Origin: Salinibacter pepae
Lineage (GTDB): Bacteria > Bacteroidota > Rhodothermia > Rhodothermales > Salinibacteraceae
Direction of reading: 5' to 3'
Assembly (NCBI RefSeq): GCF_947077775.1
Contig: NZ_CAMTTE010000001.1
Coordinates: 2,260,501-2,324,500 of the forward strand
DNA: 64,000 nucleotides
The notes below the pieces were generated by a model. The model searched no databases and was not told the DNA's origin. It worked only from the letters and a program-made list of their open reading frames with translations. Within the stretch, counting starts at the first letter, position 1. Every line of letters begins with the position of its first letter. The translations under genes were made by a program, and so were the position numbers. Positions 29,190 through 32,355 of the stretch are shown here, piece by piece.

Positions 29190-29231
29190 CAATAACAGTA
29201 ATAAGCAGCGGTCATTTGATACTTTGGCGCC
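29190..29231. repeat. 42-bp direct repeat, copy 2
   Basis: Begins CAATAACAGTAATA and ends TGGCGCC; partner of 28722-28763, about 470 bp away in the same orientation and 38 bp before the riboswitch P1 helix. Confidence 0.6.
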
Positions 29232-29268
29232 AGAAACCTACCGTACAAGACACGCTTAGTGAGCACGT

Positions 29269-29401
29269 GCTCTCCGGGGTCGTGCTGTCGTGGCACGGCG
29301 GTAGGAACGCGCCGATGGGCGCTCCTGCGTCACGGGGAAAGTCCGGTGGAAGGCCGGCGCTGCCGCGCAACGGTTCCAGCCCGAATGCCCGCTCGGAGAG
29401 C
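29269..29401 (+). promoter_or_regulatory. Cobalamin riboswitch upstream of nrdJ
   Basis: Core sequence matches the cobalamin class: GGGAA at 29335-29339, CCGGTGGAAGGCCGG (29343-29357), then GCTGCCGCGCAACGG (29359-29373), and the B12 box AGCCCGAATGCCCGC at 29378-29392. A perfect 8-bp P1 helix joins GCTCTCCG (29269-29276) to CGGAGAGC (29394-29401), which sets the limits. It is a compact form of about 133 nt. The downstream gene is the adenosylcobalamin-dependent ribonucleotide reductase, a sensible target: B12 would report cofactor supply. Repression or activation cannot be read directly, but a terminator-like hairpin lies before the gene. Confidence 0.88.
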
Positions 29402-29571
29402 GATCACGTCCCTTGCCGGCCGCCCGGTCGGAGAGGGAAGCCCTGCGCGTCTCAAGGGCATGTGGTCCGCGGCGTACGAGTTGATTGACGGCATTGGCCG
29501 GACCGTTCCGGGCAGTTCGCTCCTGCTGCCGGGGGCAGTCCTGTATTGCATCGCCTCTCTCAGCGCGCCCT

Positions 29572-29610
29572 GACCTCCGCGACGCGCGCCAACCGTCCGA
29601 GGTCCTTTTT
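29572..29610 (+). terminator. Possible riboswitch expression platform (terminator-like hairpin)
   Basis: Stem GACCTC (29572-29577) / GAGGTC (29599-29604), 21-nt loop, followed at once by CTTTTT. It lies 22 nt before the nrdJ start and about 170 nt after the aptamer. Short stem and large loop, so uncertain. Confidence 0.4.
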
Positions 29611-29631
29611 CTACTAATCGAGCGCTCAGCT

Positions 29632-32355
29632 ATGTCCCAAAATCCTTCTTCTCCAGACTCCGCAGCGGCCGATGTGACCGCCCCGGCCGAATCGACCAAC
29701 GGGCACGCCTCCAACGGCCACCGCGTCAACACCCGGTCGGGACGAAACGGGTCGCGCCAGTACCAGCTGTCCAACAGCGACCTTATCACGGACGACCGGA
29801 CGAACGACGACATCTTCGAGACCGAGATCTCCGAAGAGGTCTACGGACAAAACTACCAGTACGGCACTGACGACCGGGTGCCGGACACCTGGTACCGCAA
29901 CGCGCGGGCCATGGCCCAGGTCGAAGACGACACCGACGTGTGGACCCAGCGCTTCTATCAGCTTCTGAGCGGGAAAGGCCTGGGCACCGGCCCCTTCCCC
30001 TTCACCCCCGGCGGCCGCATCTTCGCCAACGCGGGCACCGGCCTCGGCAAGGCCACGCTCATCAACTGTTTCGTATCGGGGTTCCAGGGCCACGACCAGG
30101 ACTCGATGGACGAGATCCAGGCGGAGCTGACCCGCCAGGCCAAGATTCTGGCCTCGGAGGGGGGCTACGGGTTCTGCGCCCACATCATGCGGCCCCGCGG
30201 GGCGCGCATCGGGGGCGTCGGATCGATGACGCCCGGCGCGGTGCAGATGCTCGACGTCTGGAATAAGCAGGCCGCCACCATCGTCGCCGGCTCCGGCATG
30301 AAGTCCGACCGCGACGACGTGAAGGACAAGATCCGGAAGGGCGCCCAGATGGTGACCATGGGCATCTGGCACCCCGACATCATCGAGTTCATCGAGGCGA
30401 AGCAGGAGCCCGGGCGCCTCCACAAGTTCAACATGTCGGTCCTCATCACCGACGCGTTCATGGAGGCGGTCAAGAACGACGACACGTGGGCGCTCCGCTT
30501 CCCGGACTACGAGAACGAGAAGGAGTTCTACAAGCAGCACTGGGACGGCAACCTGAAGGCCTACCAGGAGAAGGGCGGCACGGTGAAGACGTGGAAGGAC
30601 CCGGCCACCGGAGAGCCCGCCGTCTACGAGGCGCGGGAGATCTGGAATCGGATCATGGATTCCACCTACAACCGCAACGAGCCCGGTGTCATCTTCGTCG
30701 ACACCATCAACAAGGAGAACAACCTGGGCTACGTCGAGCACATCAACGCCACCAACCCGTGTGGCGAGCAGGTCCTCCCCGTCGGCGGCGTGTGCTTGCT
30801 GGGCAACCTCAACGTGACGCAGCTCGTGGACCGGGAGGCGGGCACGATCGACTACGACCTGGTCGACGACCTCGTCCCGCGTGCGGTGCGCTTCCTCGAC
30901 AACGTCAACGACCTCAGCTACGTCCCGCTGGAGGAGCAGCAGCGCAACCTGCAGGAGAAGCGCCGCATCGGCCTCGGCCACTACGGCGACGGCTCGGCCC
31001 TCATGATGATGAAGACCCGCTACGGCTCCGAGGAGGGCGCCCGCGTGATGCGCGAGTTCCAGGAGCACCTCGCCAACCGGGCCTACCAGGCCAGCGCGCG
31101 CCTCGCCGAGGAGAAGGGCGCGTTCCCGCTCTTCGACAAGGACGAGTACCTGTCGAGTCCCTTCGTCCAGCGCCTCTCGGACAAGACGAAGGAGATGATT
31201 GGCGACCTGGGGCTCCGCAACAGCCACCTGCTTAGCATCCAGCCGACGGGCAACACCTCCACGTTGGGCAACGCGCCGTCGAGCGGCATCGAGCCGGTGT
31301 TCATGCACAGCTACATCCGGACGTCCGAGCAGCCGGCGCTGCCCGACGGCATCACCCGCCCGCCGATGTCCCCGAACGCCTACGAGGTGGGGCAGGACAT
31401 CGACGCCGACGGCACGGCCTGGACCGCCGAGGAGCAGGGCGACGAGACGGTGCTCCGCTGCCAGGAAGAGGGCCACACCCACTGGCAGATTCACCCGACC
31501 CGCGACATCTGCAAGGACCAGGAGGTGAAGGACTACGCGGTGCGCCACATGGAGACGGACGGCACCTGGGACCCGGACGCCGACTGGGCCGTCACGACCC
31601 GCGACCTGGACGTGGACGACCACCTCACCCAGATGAAGGCCCTGGCGCCGTTCGTGGACTCCTCGATGTCCAAGACGGTGAACGTTCCCAACGACTACCC
31701 CTTCGAGGACTTCAAGGAGCTCTACAAGAAGGCCCACGACACGGGCGTCATCAAGGGCGTGACCACGTACCGGGCCGGCACCATGAGTGCCGTGCTTTCC
31801 GGCGACGACGGGGACGACGACCGGACCGTGCCCCGCACCGAGGCGCCCGACCGCCCGGAGACCCTGCCGTGCGCCATCCACCGCGTGCGGTACCAGGGCG
31901 ACCACTGGACCATCCTGGTCGGCTTTCTGGAGGACCACCCCTACGAGGTCTTCGCGTTCAAGTCGGAAGGGGAGGCCCCGCTCTTCGGCGACGACAGCGA
32001 GCGTGTCGACGAGGGCTACATCCGGAAGAACGAGAGCCGCCACTACTCGCTTCTGGGCCCGGACGGCACGGTCGTGATCGGCGACATCACCAGTCACATG
32101 CCGTCCGACGACGTGCGCGTAGAGACGCGGCTCGTGTCCACGGCGCTGCGCCACGGCTCCAAGATTGACTTCCTCGTGGAGCAGCTTGAGAAGGCGGAGG
32201 GCTCGATTGCGTCCTTCGGCCAGTCGATGGCGAAGGCCCTGCGCGCCCACGCCACCGACCACGAGGTCACCTGCGACAAGTGCGGGTCCGCAAACGTGCG
32301 CCACGTCGAGGGCTGCATGGAGTGCGCGGACTGCGGGCACTCGCGGTGCAGCTAG
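29632..32355 (+). CDS. nrdJ: Adenosylcobalamin-dependent ribonucleotide reductase (class II)
   Basis: Makes deoxyribonucleotides using a B12-generated thiyl radical, needing no oxygen or second subunit. 907 aa from ATG 29632 (frame is open upstream, but the leader carries the riboswitch). Landmarks: FPFTPGGRIFANAGTG, NCFVSGFQGHDQDSMDEI, FCAHIMRPRGARIGGVGS, NPCGEQ near residue 375, SSGIEPVF and the C-terminal Cys-rich tail CDKCGSANVRHVEGCMECADCG, a zinc-ribbon-like end that in this family shuttles electrons to the active site. The 65-residue N-terminal extension is Ser/Asn/Asp-rich. A strong terminator follows. Confidence 0.95.
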   Translation: MSQNPSSPDSAAADVTAPAESTNGHASNGHRVNTRSGRNGSRQYQLSNSDLITDDRTNDDIFETEISEEVYGQNYQYGTDDRVPDTWYRNARAMAQVEDDTDVWTQRFYQLLSGKGLGTGPFPFTPGGRIFANAGTGLGKATLINCFVSGFQGHDQDSMDEIQAELTRQAKILASEGGYGFCAHIMRPRGARIGGVGSMTPGAVQMLDVWNKQAATIVAGSGMKSDRDDVKDKIRKGAQMVTMGIWHPDIIEFIEAKQEPGRLHKFNMSVLITDAFMEAVKNDDTWALRFPDYENEKEFYKQHWDGNLKAYQEKGGTVKTWKDPATGEPAVYEAREIWNRIMDSTYNRNEPGVIFVDTINKENNLGYVEHINATNPCGEQVLPVGGVCLLGNLNVTQLVDREAGTIDYDLVDDLVPRAVRFLDNVNDLSYVPLEEQQRNLQEKRRIGLGHYGDGSALMMMKTRYGSEEGARVMREFQEHLANRAYQASARLAEEKGAFPLFDKDEYLSSPFVQRLSDKTKEMIGDLGLRNSHLLSIQPTGNTSTLGNAPSSGIEPVFMHSYIRTSEQPALPDGITRPPMSPNAYEVGQDIDADGTAWTAEEQGDETVLRCQEEGHTHWQIHPTRDICKDQEVKDYAVRHMETDGTWDPDADWAVTTRDLDVDDHLTQMKALAPFVDSSMSKTVNVPNDYPFEDFKELYKKAHDTGVIKGVTTYRAGTMSAVLSGDDGDDDRTVPRTEAPDRPETLPCAIHRVRYQGDHWTILVGFLEDHPYEVFAFKSEGEAPLFGDDSERVDEGYIRKNESRHYSLLGPDGTVVIGDITSHMPSDDVRVETRLVSTALRHGSKIDFLVEQLEKAEGSIASFGQSMAKALRAHATDHEVTCDKCGSANVRHVEGCMECADCGHSRCS

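What the first reader, a model, noticed from the sequence alone, without database searches (positions are those of the whole stretch)
29269..29610. Compact cobalamin riboswitch on class II ribonucleotide reductase, with long leader
The aptamer core and B12 box fit, with an 8-bp P1, but the form is short (about 133 nt) and the gene starts 230 nt further on, with a terminator-like hairpin just before it. Control of the B12-dependent RNR by B12 itself is counter-intuitive if the switch is of the usual OFF type: in Streptomyces, B12 represses the class I enzyme, not the B12-dependent one. An ON switch, or an additional class I enzyme elsewhere, should be considered.
Basis: partly seen in the sequence, partly recalled or inferred. 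Interest (0 to 1): 0.5.

Follow-up and report, generated by a model that had tools for sequence, protein, structure and literature searches.

The report
B12 riboswitch on B12-dependent ribonucleotide reductase
In the salt-loving bacterium Salinibacter and its relatives, an RNA switch that senses vitamin B12 sits in front of the DNA-building-block enzyme that itself needs B12, and it carries the parts of an off-switch, the opposite of what textbook logic would predict.

Summary
Window 29269-29401 is a cobalamin riboswitch aptamer of the AdoCbl-II group (36.8 bits, cut-off 36.5) with an 8-bp P1, 230 nt before nrdJ (class II RNR). The same genome has a class I RNR (nrdB-nrdA) behind a homologous riboswitch. 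In 114 genomes of the order a model of this aptamer finds 34 copies in 27 genomes: 20 on class I RNR operons (one by leader similarity only), 3 before metE, 1 on a thioesterase-like gene, 1 on a plasmid-size contig, 9 on nrdJ. Nine of 14 nrdJ orthologues have it. In two near-complete genomes NrdJ is the only class I/II RNR found.

Downstream lie a P13 hairpin whose loop can kiss L5, and a separate terminator-like hairpin with a U-tract whose 5' arm can pair with the P13 loop. This is the repressing layout known from Priestia megaterium metE; the activating layout is not met. Most likely AdoCbl turns nrdJ off, as it does the class I operon. Antiterminator evidence is strong for class I leaders, weak to mixed for nrdJ. 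Ligand and sign are untested. My searches listed no report of a cobalamin riboswitch on nrdJ.

The parts
29216..29244 (+). Promoter-like TTGATA-N17-TACCGT, start of transcription expected near 29251
   Evidence: Own pattern TTGA[CT]N-N16-18-TA matches at this place in 9 of 9 riboswitch-bearing nrdJ leaders and in 5 of 13 nrdB leaders. The strict sigma-70 scan finds none.
29269..29401 (+). Cobalamin riboswitch aptamer, P1 to P1 (AdoCbl-II group)
   Evidence: RF01689 36.8 bits; model R1 141.7 bits, site in training set; covariation
29269..29276 (+). P1 5' strand, pairs with 29394-29401
   Evidence: sequence; two-sided changes in 7 of the 8 pairs of the P1 block across 18 homologues
29394..29401 (+). 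P1 3' strand
29278..29299 (+). Extra hairpin after P1 with conserved loop UGUCGUG
   Evidence: covarying stem
29300..29328 (+). P2 hairpin, variable in sequence and length
   Evidence: sequence and fold; 3 pairs with two-sided changes
29333..29391 (+). Conserved binding core: P3, P4, P5 with L5, P6, J6/3
   Evidence: 42 of the 43 invariant columns of the 18-row alignment lie here
29362..29369 (+). L5 strand GCCGCGCA; can kiss the P13 loop
   Evidence: 5 of 6 positions complementary to L13 in 20 leaders and 6 of 6 in two, of 22
29402..29407 (+). Helix Px 5' strand GAUCAC, pairs with 29462-29467
   Evidence: read by eye from leaders; the script that tried to tally it did not locate this strand in most leaders, so it is not counted
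29440..29459 (+). P13 hairpin, loop L13 GCGCGUC at 29445-29451
   Evidence: 12 strand combinations in 22 leaders; own strands 0.94 paired, swapped mean 0.83, max 0.90 of 2000; strands were picked by eye, which favours own pairing
29462..29467 (+). Helix Px 3' strand GUGGUC
   Evidence: read by eye
29572..29604 (+). Terminator-like hairpin
   Evidence: -12.7 kcal/mol, z -1.68; conserved CCUUCG...CGUCCGAAGG type in relatives
29581..29587 (+). Terminator 5' arm segment GACGCGC, complementary to L13 (antiterminator pairing)
   Evidence: 7 of 7 pairs; duplex -15.2 kcal/mol
29605..29612 (+). U-tract CUUUUUCU
   Evidence: sequence
29562..29566 (+). Outer helix 5' strand AGCGC around the terminator
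   Evidence: outer helix: 9 strand combinations in 18 leaders, own 0.94 paired, swapped mean 0.54, max 0.77 of 2000; strands were picked by eye, which favours own pairing
29622..29626 (+). Outer helix 3' strand GCGCU, just before the start codon
   Evidence: fold
29632..32355 (+). nrdJ, adenosylcobalamin-dependent class II ribonucleotide reductase, 907 aa
   Evidence: TIGR02504 433.7 bits over cut-off 399.95; NrdE_NrdA 232.4 under its cut-off; PF02867

Best explanation
This is a cobalamin riboswitch that attenuates transcription of nrdJ and represses it. Shown by sequence: promoter-like element, aptamer, L5 and L13 complementarity, P13, a separate hairpin with U-tract, and nrdJ. Inferred: when AdoCbl binds, L5 and L13 kiss, P13 is locked, and the terminator before nrdJ forms (OFF). 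Without AdoCbl, L13 (in Salinivenus also the 5' side of P13) pairs with the terminator's 5' arm and transcription reads through (ON). The leader has the same build as the one on the class I operon nrdBA of the same genome, so B12 would lower both RNRs. Proposed purpose (speculation): compensation, with more NrdJ apoenzyme made when its cofactor is scarce and less when each molecule is saturated, holding dNTP supply steady in an organism that imports B12.
For: The aptamer is real. The layout equals the repressing P. megaterium metE switch: L5-L13 kiss, P13 side pairing with the terminator 5' side (PMC10653944; abstract, passages, sections 9 and 14 seen). In the full-length fold nine of nine nrdB leaders gain the hairpin when L5 and L13 are blocked.50 to 1.49 to 1.46 to .89, 0 to 1.17 to .89, 0 to 1.53 to .99, 0 to .52.06 to .83 (the last two, G016 and G022, have no U-tract); the two Salinivenus nrdJ leaders do the same.66 to 1.0 and .66 to .95 (18 of 22 leaders tested). 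Folding only P13 to the terminator loop (so without the Px 5' strand), L13:arm pairing has probability .84-1.00 in the same 18 leaders. As a pseudoknot with P13 kept, L13:arm is favoured by 8.4-10.6 kcal/mol before any pseudoknot penalty in the six ruber-type nrdJ leaders (15 of 22 tested). 23 of 34 copies of this aptamer stand before B12-independent isozymes (20 class I RNR, one of them by leader similarity only, and 3 metE), the usual targets of OFF switches. Importer: no CbiC in the genome; a TonB receptor and a periplasmic binding protein lie behind the third cobalamin riboswitch.
Against: In the full-length fold five of six ruber-type nrdJ leaders keep the terminator in both states (.93-1.0 free.94-1.0 bound), the sixth (G007) goes the other way.60 to .28, and G018 stays at 0 in both with my definition of its 3' arm. 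In the platform-only fold the state with L13 blocked is as stable as or slightly more stable than the antiterminator in four of nine nrdJ leaders (G001, G003, G007, G012). With L13 blocked the terminator forms only at .23 in G011. The length of the L13:arm match in nrdJ leaders is not exceptional: 11-71 per 1000 shuffles in five, 135 and 150 in two, 506 and 539 in the Salinivenus pair, and 1-14 other sites of the same leader match as well, against 0-16 per 1000 and 0-3 other sites in nine nrdB leaders. Repressing a B12-dependent enzyme with B12 has no obvious benefit, and 5 of 14 nrdJ orthologues lack the aptamer. The terminator scan found nothing. No ligand or expression data.
Confidence: 0.6

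Rival explanations
1. ON switch: AdoCbl binding prevents the terminator, so the B12-dependent RNR is made only when its cofactor is present, while the paralogous switch turns class I off. The pair would be a toggle.
For: Makes biological sense. A natural activating corrinoid riboswitch exists (A. halodurans cobT, PMC10653944). One nrdJ leader (G007) shows a lower terminator probability with L5 and L13 blocked.60 to .28. The antiterminator match is weaker in nrdJ than in nrdB leaders.
Against: The activating layout needs P13 to share bases with the terminator; here they are 112 nt apart and no other U-tract lies in the leader. L13:arm complementarity is kept through a G-C to A-U exchange between the ruber-type nrdJ and most nrdB leaders (GCGCGUC/GACGCGC and ACGCGUC/GACGCGU), with G-U variants in G018, G009, G016 and G022; only the Salinivenus pair has 4 of 7. 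In genomes with NrdJ alone an ON switch gains little (inference).
Confidence: 0.15
2. A captured or decaying leader: the aptamer came along with a riboswitch leader copied from another operon and no longer controls nrdJ appreciably.
For: 5 of 14 nrdJ orthologues have no aptamer, and one of them (G008) still has a terminator-like hairpin without a U-tract (by eye). Full-length folds of ruber-type leaders do not switch to OFF on binding. A further copy stands on a plasmid-size contig.
Against: Binding core invariant across nrdJ and nrdB rows; P1 covaries; aptamer kept in nrdJ orthologues at 79-98% protein identity, one in another genus.
Confidence: 0.17
3. Repression at translation rather than at termination: the outer helix that ends a few bases before the start codon closes over the initiation region in the bound state.
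For: The outer helix differs in sequence but stays paired among leaders (strands picked by eye). G016 and G022 keep hairpin and outer helix without a U-tract, and the Rhodothermus-type leaders L012 and L013 show a start-proximal hairpin without a U-tract (by eye).
Against: U-tracts of 4-7 U in 9 of 9 nrdJ leaders that carry the aptamer; in five nrdB leaders (G000, G003, G004, G007, G009) the start codon lies far beyond the outer helix.
Confidence: 0.08

Closest known systems
AdoCbl-II riboswitch, Rfam RF01689 (cobalamin clan CL00101)
   Same: Same core; match over the gathering score; L5 and P13 kissing-loop anatomy
   Different: Own outer P1 enclosing an extra 5' hairpin, a helix Px around P13 (by eye), and a target gene (nrdJ) that needs B12
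Priestia megaterium metE corrinoid riboswitch (PMC10653944)
   Same: Layout of P13, separate terminator, antiterminator from P13 side and terminator 5' arm
   Different: Controls a B12-independent enzyme; here mainly the loop L13 rather than the 3' side of P13 makes the alternative pairing
Alkalihalobacillus halodurans cobT activating corrinoid riboswitch (PMC10653944)
   Same: Kissing loop and intrinsic terminator
   Different: There P13 is itself the antiterminator and shares bases with the terminator; here it does not
Cobalamin riboswitch on class I or III RNR beside an nrdJ without one: P. acnes nrdAB and nrdDG (PMC3848588, passage), delta-proteobacterial nrdDG (PMC545781, passage; it does not say whether nrdJ has one), Streptomyces nrdABS (Borovok 2006, cited in PMC5962746, not read)
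   Same: Cobalamin riboswitch on the B12-independent RNR, as on nrdBA here
   Different: In P. acnes nrdRJ is stated to have no cobalamin riboswitch; here nrdJ has one
nrdJ RNA motif RF03034 (listed for Streptomyces lividans in PMC8079986, passage)
   Same: A leader RNA on nrdJ
   Different: Different family; no match here

Membership tests
AdoCbl-II riboswitch RF01689 | Covariance-model score over the curated gathering score | tested here: met
   36.8 against 36.5, narrowly; up to 50.3 in relatives
AdoCbl-II riboswitch RF01689 | Conserved core with P3 to P6 and kissing loop L5-L13 | tested here: met
   by sequence only:
AdoCbl-II riboswitch RF01689 | Binds adenosylcobalamin | not testable with these tools
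   needs in-line probing or a reporter
Repressing corrinoid attenuator (P. megaterium metE type) | Terminator separate from P13 | tested here: met
   29440-29459 against 29572-29604
Repressing corrinoid attenuator (P. megaterium metE type) | P13 side or loop pairs with the terminator 5' arm when unbound | tested here: inconclusive
   7 of 7 complementary; favoured in platform-only and pseudoknot estimates, not in the full-length fold of this leader
Activating corrinoid riboswitch (A. halodurans cobT type) | P13 and terminator share bases | tested here: not met
   112 nt apart; single U-tract
Class II RNR NrdJ (TIGR02504) | Score over curated cut-off, best of the RNR families, no NrdB beside it | tested here: met
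   433.7 against 399.95, NrdE_NrdA 232.4 under 341.05; next gene is aspartate kinase/DAP decarboxylase. Caution: the Rhodothermus-type class I NrdA also passes this cut-off (411.8), though its best family is class I
nrdJ RNA motif RF03034 | Covariance-model match | tested here: not met
   no match in the window at gathering

The most novel reading that the evidence does not exclude
The two paralogous riboswitches of one genome work with opposite signs: AdoCbl turns the class I RNR operon off and the B12-dependent NrdJ on, a natural AdoCbl-activated switch on an AdoCbl enzyme, evolved from a repressing leader by weakening its antiterminator.
Probability: 0.15. Interest if true: 0.8.

Novelty: new variant of a known kind. 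Interest (0 to 1): 0.5.

Why it matters
Cobalamin riboswitch regulons have been sorted into B12 synthesis, B12 transport, cobalt transport and isozymes of B12-dependent enzymes (PMC3766115, passages). Here a riboswitch of the same build sits on the B12-dependent isozyme as well, in some genomes on what may be the only RNR. If it represses, it is a cofactor-compensation circuit on an essential enzyme; if it activates, one genome holds an ON and an OFF switch of common descent. Either way the pair gives a clean natural test of how expression platforms set the sign of a riboswitch, in a harmless halophile.

Tried and rejected
First candidate for the L5 partner (GCGGC near 29466) was dropped: the P13 loop is complementary to L5 in all 22 leaders. 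Pairing of the pre-terminator strand with P1 was considered and dropped by eye, because that strand matches the one after the U-tract better across leaders. A tree of 30 aptamers (129 columns) was too weakly supported to order the nrdJ and nrdB copies. A tree of NrdJ proteins (12 of 14 orthologues plus an outgroup; G005 and G011 left out as broken up) needs 3 gains or losses of the riboswitch and is weakly supported. A degenerate aptamer in the five riboswitch-less nrdJ loci was sought with R1, filters off: 27 matches up to E 5, best 10.7 bits (E 0.23, far upstream on the other strand), best in a leader 7.3 bits (E 1.3). Thirty further NrdJ_Z loci from a 198-genome phylum sample (drawn from its best-scoring matches; many more were not fetched) have no Rfam match at gathering and no R1 match; four of them (L109, L110, L112, L114) are NrdJ-type genes of the Rhodothermus-type family. 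The search for related loci for NrdJ found 10 loci (76-96% identity), 6 of them with an R1 match. The Px tally failed in the script and is not counted. The promoter pattern missed 8 of 13 nrdB leaders; in three of these (G008, G009, G010) my anchor was wrong and the element is visible by eye. RF01689 also matches G027 below its cut-off (28.6 bits); R1 does not. Not run: structure prediction, viral or metagenome scans.

Full report
CHECK OF THE OBSERVATION. The window lies in a 3.63-Mb, 3-contig genome (C1:2260501-2324500). Rfam gives one match at gathering in the 64-kb window: AdoCbl-II RF01689 at 29322-29398(+), 36.8 bits against 36.5. The Rfam model pairs other bases there, which partly explains the marginal score. 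In an 18-row alignment of homologous leaders (9 nrdJ, 9 nrdB; 18 of the 22 held, the near-duplicate nrdB row of G003 and the nrdB rows of G014, G021 and G022 left out) the consensus has 33 pairs. Seventeen have two-sided changes that keep the pair, all in P1, the 5' hairpin and P2; P3 to P6 hardly vary. Model R1 from these rows scores the window site 141.7 bits, the next window match 10.4 bits; the site is in the training set.

GENE. The ORF from ATG 29632 (907 aa) is NrdJ: TIGR02504 433.7 bits over cut-off 399.95, class I families under theirs. The next gene is aspartate kinase/diaminopimelate decarboxylase. S. ruber DSM 13855 is listed with nrdB-nrdA and NrdJ in PMC3019208 (passages).

THE REST OF THE GENOME. 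The genome also has nrdB (C1:2067475-2068446) and nrdA, with a riboswitch of the same kind upstream (C1:2066833-2066982, R1 144.6 bits; RF01689 44.1 bits). A third cobalamin riboswitch (RF00174, 44.8 bits) precedes a TonB-dependent receptor and, further on, a periplasmic binding protein. CbiC was not found (0 of 1 genome; the control rang in 7 of 14), so the organism probably imports B12.

DISTRIBUTION. R1 finds 34 copies in 27 of 114 genomes of the order, all in the window's family and in the Rhodothermus-type family f3 (stricter filters). The name Rhodothermus is my guess for f3. By downstream gene: 13 nrdB; 7 in f3 before NrdA-like ORFs (G026 confirmed by NCBIfam with NrdB behind it; G040, G066, G067, G069 and G070 by their ORF starts; G068 runs into a contig end and is assigned by leader similarity only); 3 before metE (G019, G020, G080; an ATP-cone ORF lies between in G019, and in G080 an ORF that resembles the G014 thioesterase by eye); 1 before a thioesterase-like ORF (G014, under its family cut-off); 1 on a 35,505-base contig of G003; 9 before nrdJ. 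Of 27 genomes in the family, 14 have an nrdJ orthologue at 75-100% identity over the best stretch of its first 323 residues. Eight genomes had only weaker matches to distant RNRs (20-123 bits), which I dropped, and five had none. Nine of the 14 have the riboswitch (G000, G001, G003, G004, G005, G007, G011, G012, G018) and five do not (G002, G006, G008, G009, G010). G008, G009 and G010 have the riboswitch on nrdB instead, the usual arrangement. Class III RNR was not searched. G011, G018 and G005 look the same but are less complete, and the G005 gene is cut at a contig end.

ANATOMY OF THE LEADER. 9 of 9 riboswitch-bearing nrdJ leaders have a promoter-like TTGA(T/C)A-N17-TA element just upstream of P1; the strict scan does not report it. 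After P1 come helix Px (by eye), a variable hairpin, and P13 with loop RCGCGYC. L13 is complementary to L5 in 5 of 6 positions in 20 leaders and 6 of 6 in two (G014, G021), 22 in all, mostly through an invariant CGCG, so covariation here is slight. P13 strands vary and stay paired. About 110 nt further on is a hairpin of the type CCUUCG(u)GACGCG...CGUCCGAAGG with a U-tract. In nrdJ leaders and in four nrdB leaders (G008, G010, G016, G022) a start codon follows at once; in five others (G000, G003, G004, G007, G009) nrdB starts much further on. In four of 13 nrdB leaders (G014, G015, G021, G080) I recognised no such hairpin and left them out of the switching tests; G016 and G022 have it without a U-tract. 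An outer helix around hairpin and U-tract varies in sequence and stays paired: own strands 0.94 paired, swapped mean 0.54, maximum 0.77 of 2000 (18 leaders). The strands for this test were picked by eye, which favours own pairing.

DIRECTION OF THE SWITCH. Procknow et al. 2023 (PMC10653944; abstract, passages, sections 9 and 14 seen) define two layouts. Repressing: a P13 side pairs with the terminator 5' arm when no ligand is bound. Activating: P13 shares bases with the terminator. The nrdJ leader fits the first: no overlap, one U-tract, and L13 GCGCGUC against arm GACGCGC. In most nrdB leaders the pair is ACGCGUC against GACGCGU, a G-C to A-U exchange between the groups; G009, G016, G018 and G022 have G-U variants and the Salinivenus pair only 4 of 7. 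Tests: (a) full-length fold, bound state mimicked by blocking L5 and L13 (18 of 22 leaders): 9 of 9 nrdB leaders gain the hairpin on binding, and so do the two Salinivenus nrdJ leaders; five of six ruber-type nrdJ leaders keep it at .93-1.0 in both states, G007 falls from .60 to .28, and G018 stays at 0 with my definition of its 3' arm while its L13:arm pairing is .99. (b) P13 to terminator loop only, without the Px 5' strand (same 18): L13:arm probability .84-1.00 in all; with the full hairpin, the antiterminator is more stable than the L13-blocked state in five of nine nrdJ leaders and level or slightly less stable in four. (c) Pseudoknot estimate (15 of 22): -8.4 to -10.6 kcal/mol before penalty in the six ruber-type nrdJ leaders, -4.8 to +0.4 in seven nrdB leaders, +2.0 in the two Salinivenus leaders, whose P13 strand may take part instead. 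In the same test the terminator forms only at .23 in G011 with L13 blocked (.83-1.00 in the other 14). (d) Chance control: the L13:arm run is rare by shuffle in nrdB (0-16 per 1000) but not in nrdJ (11-539 per 1000). I read this as a repressing layout kept in nrdJ with weaker sequence evidence. Confidence 0.6.

WHAT IS KNOWN. The usual account is that B12 represses the B12-independent isozyme and leaves the B12-dependent one in use (PMC545781 passage on nrdDG; PMC3848588 passage: nrdAB and nrdDG have the riboswitch, nrdRJ does not). Searches for 'cobalamin riboswitch' with 'nrdJ' (11 papers), 'riboswitch' with 'nrdJ' (22), 'riboswitch' with 'class II ribonucleotide reductase' (10), and 'Salinibacter ruber' with 'riboswitch' (2) list no paper whose title or abstract start reports a cobalamin riboswitch on nrdJ. 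I opened passages of ten of these papers; twelve of the 22 stayed unopened (paper cap reached). One passage bears on novelty: PMC5962746 counts 'vitamin B12-dependent enzymes', some RNRs of other microorganisms among them, as usually regulated by a B12 riboswitch, citing Vitreschak 2003 and Borovok 2006, which I did not read. It also reports that added B12 slightly lowered expression of all three nrd operons of P. aeruginosa independently of a riboswitch. The library lacks most subscription papers.

STATUS OF CLAIMS. Shown: aptamer, gene, second RNR with homologous leader, distribution. Inferred: ligand, sign, antitermination, physiological purpose. 

Noticed in passing
L085 (G003:C2, 35,505-base contig), match G003:C2:22508-22654(-): A third copy of the nrdJ-type leader with a changed L5 (UUCGCAAAAC) and changed L13 (UGCGUGUC) stands before a 265-aa ORF with a weak restriction-nuclease-like match (PF18741, E 0.0017, under cut-off; no PADLOC match).
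   Followed up: partly
L047, L051, L053, L055 (nrdJ of G006, G018, G009, G011); L096, L098, L099: Open frames of 1182-1702 aa and matches spanning 3.6-3.75 kb against 2.7 kb here suggest inserted in-frame elements such as inteins in some nrdJ genes.
   Followed up: no
G003:C1:175396-177015, G004:C1:172283-173905, G009:C19:288856-290481: One nrdA match is stretched by about 1.1 kb without stops in three genomes; PMC3019208 (passage) reports a group I intron in S. ruber nrdA.
   Followed up: no
L083:1834-2205(+): A 124-aa ATP-cone-like ORF sits between a cobalamin riboswitch and metE in G019.
   Followed up: no
L054 (nrdJ leader of G008): Leader without aptamer keeps a hairpin GCCTTCG...CGTCCGAAGGC without a U-tract, perhaps a relic of the terminator (by eye).
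   Followed up: partly
L016, L079 (nrdB leaders of G016, G022): Hairpin and outer helix kept but no U-tract, a start codon directly behind: a possible change from termination to translation control.
   Followed up: partly
window 29278-29299: Extra hairpin between P1 and P2 with a conserved loop UGUCGUG in most aligned copies; its role is unknown.
   Followed up: no
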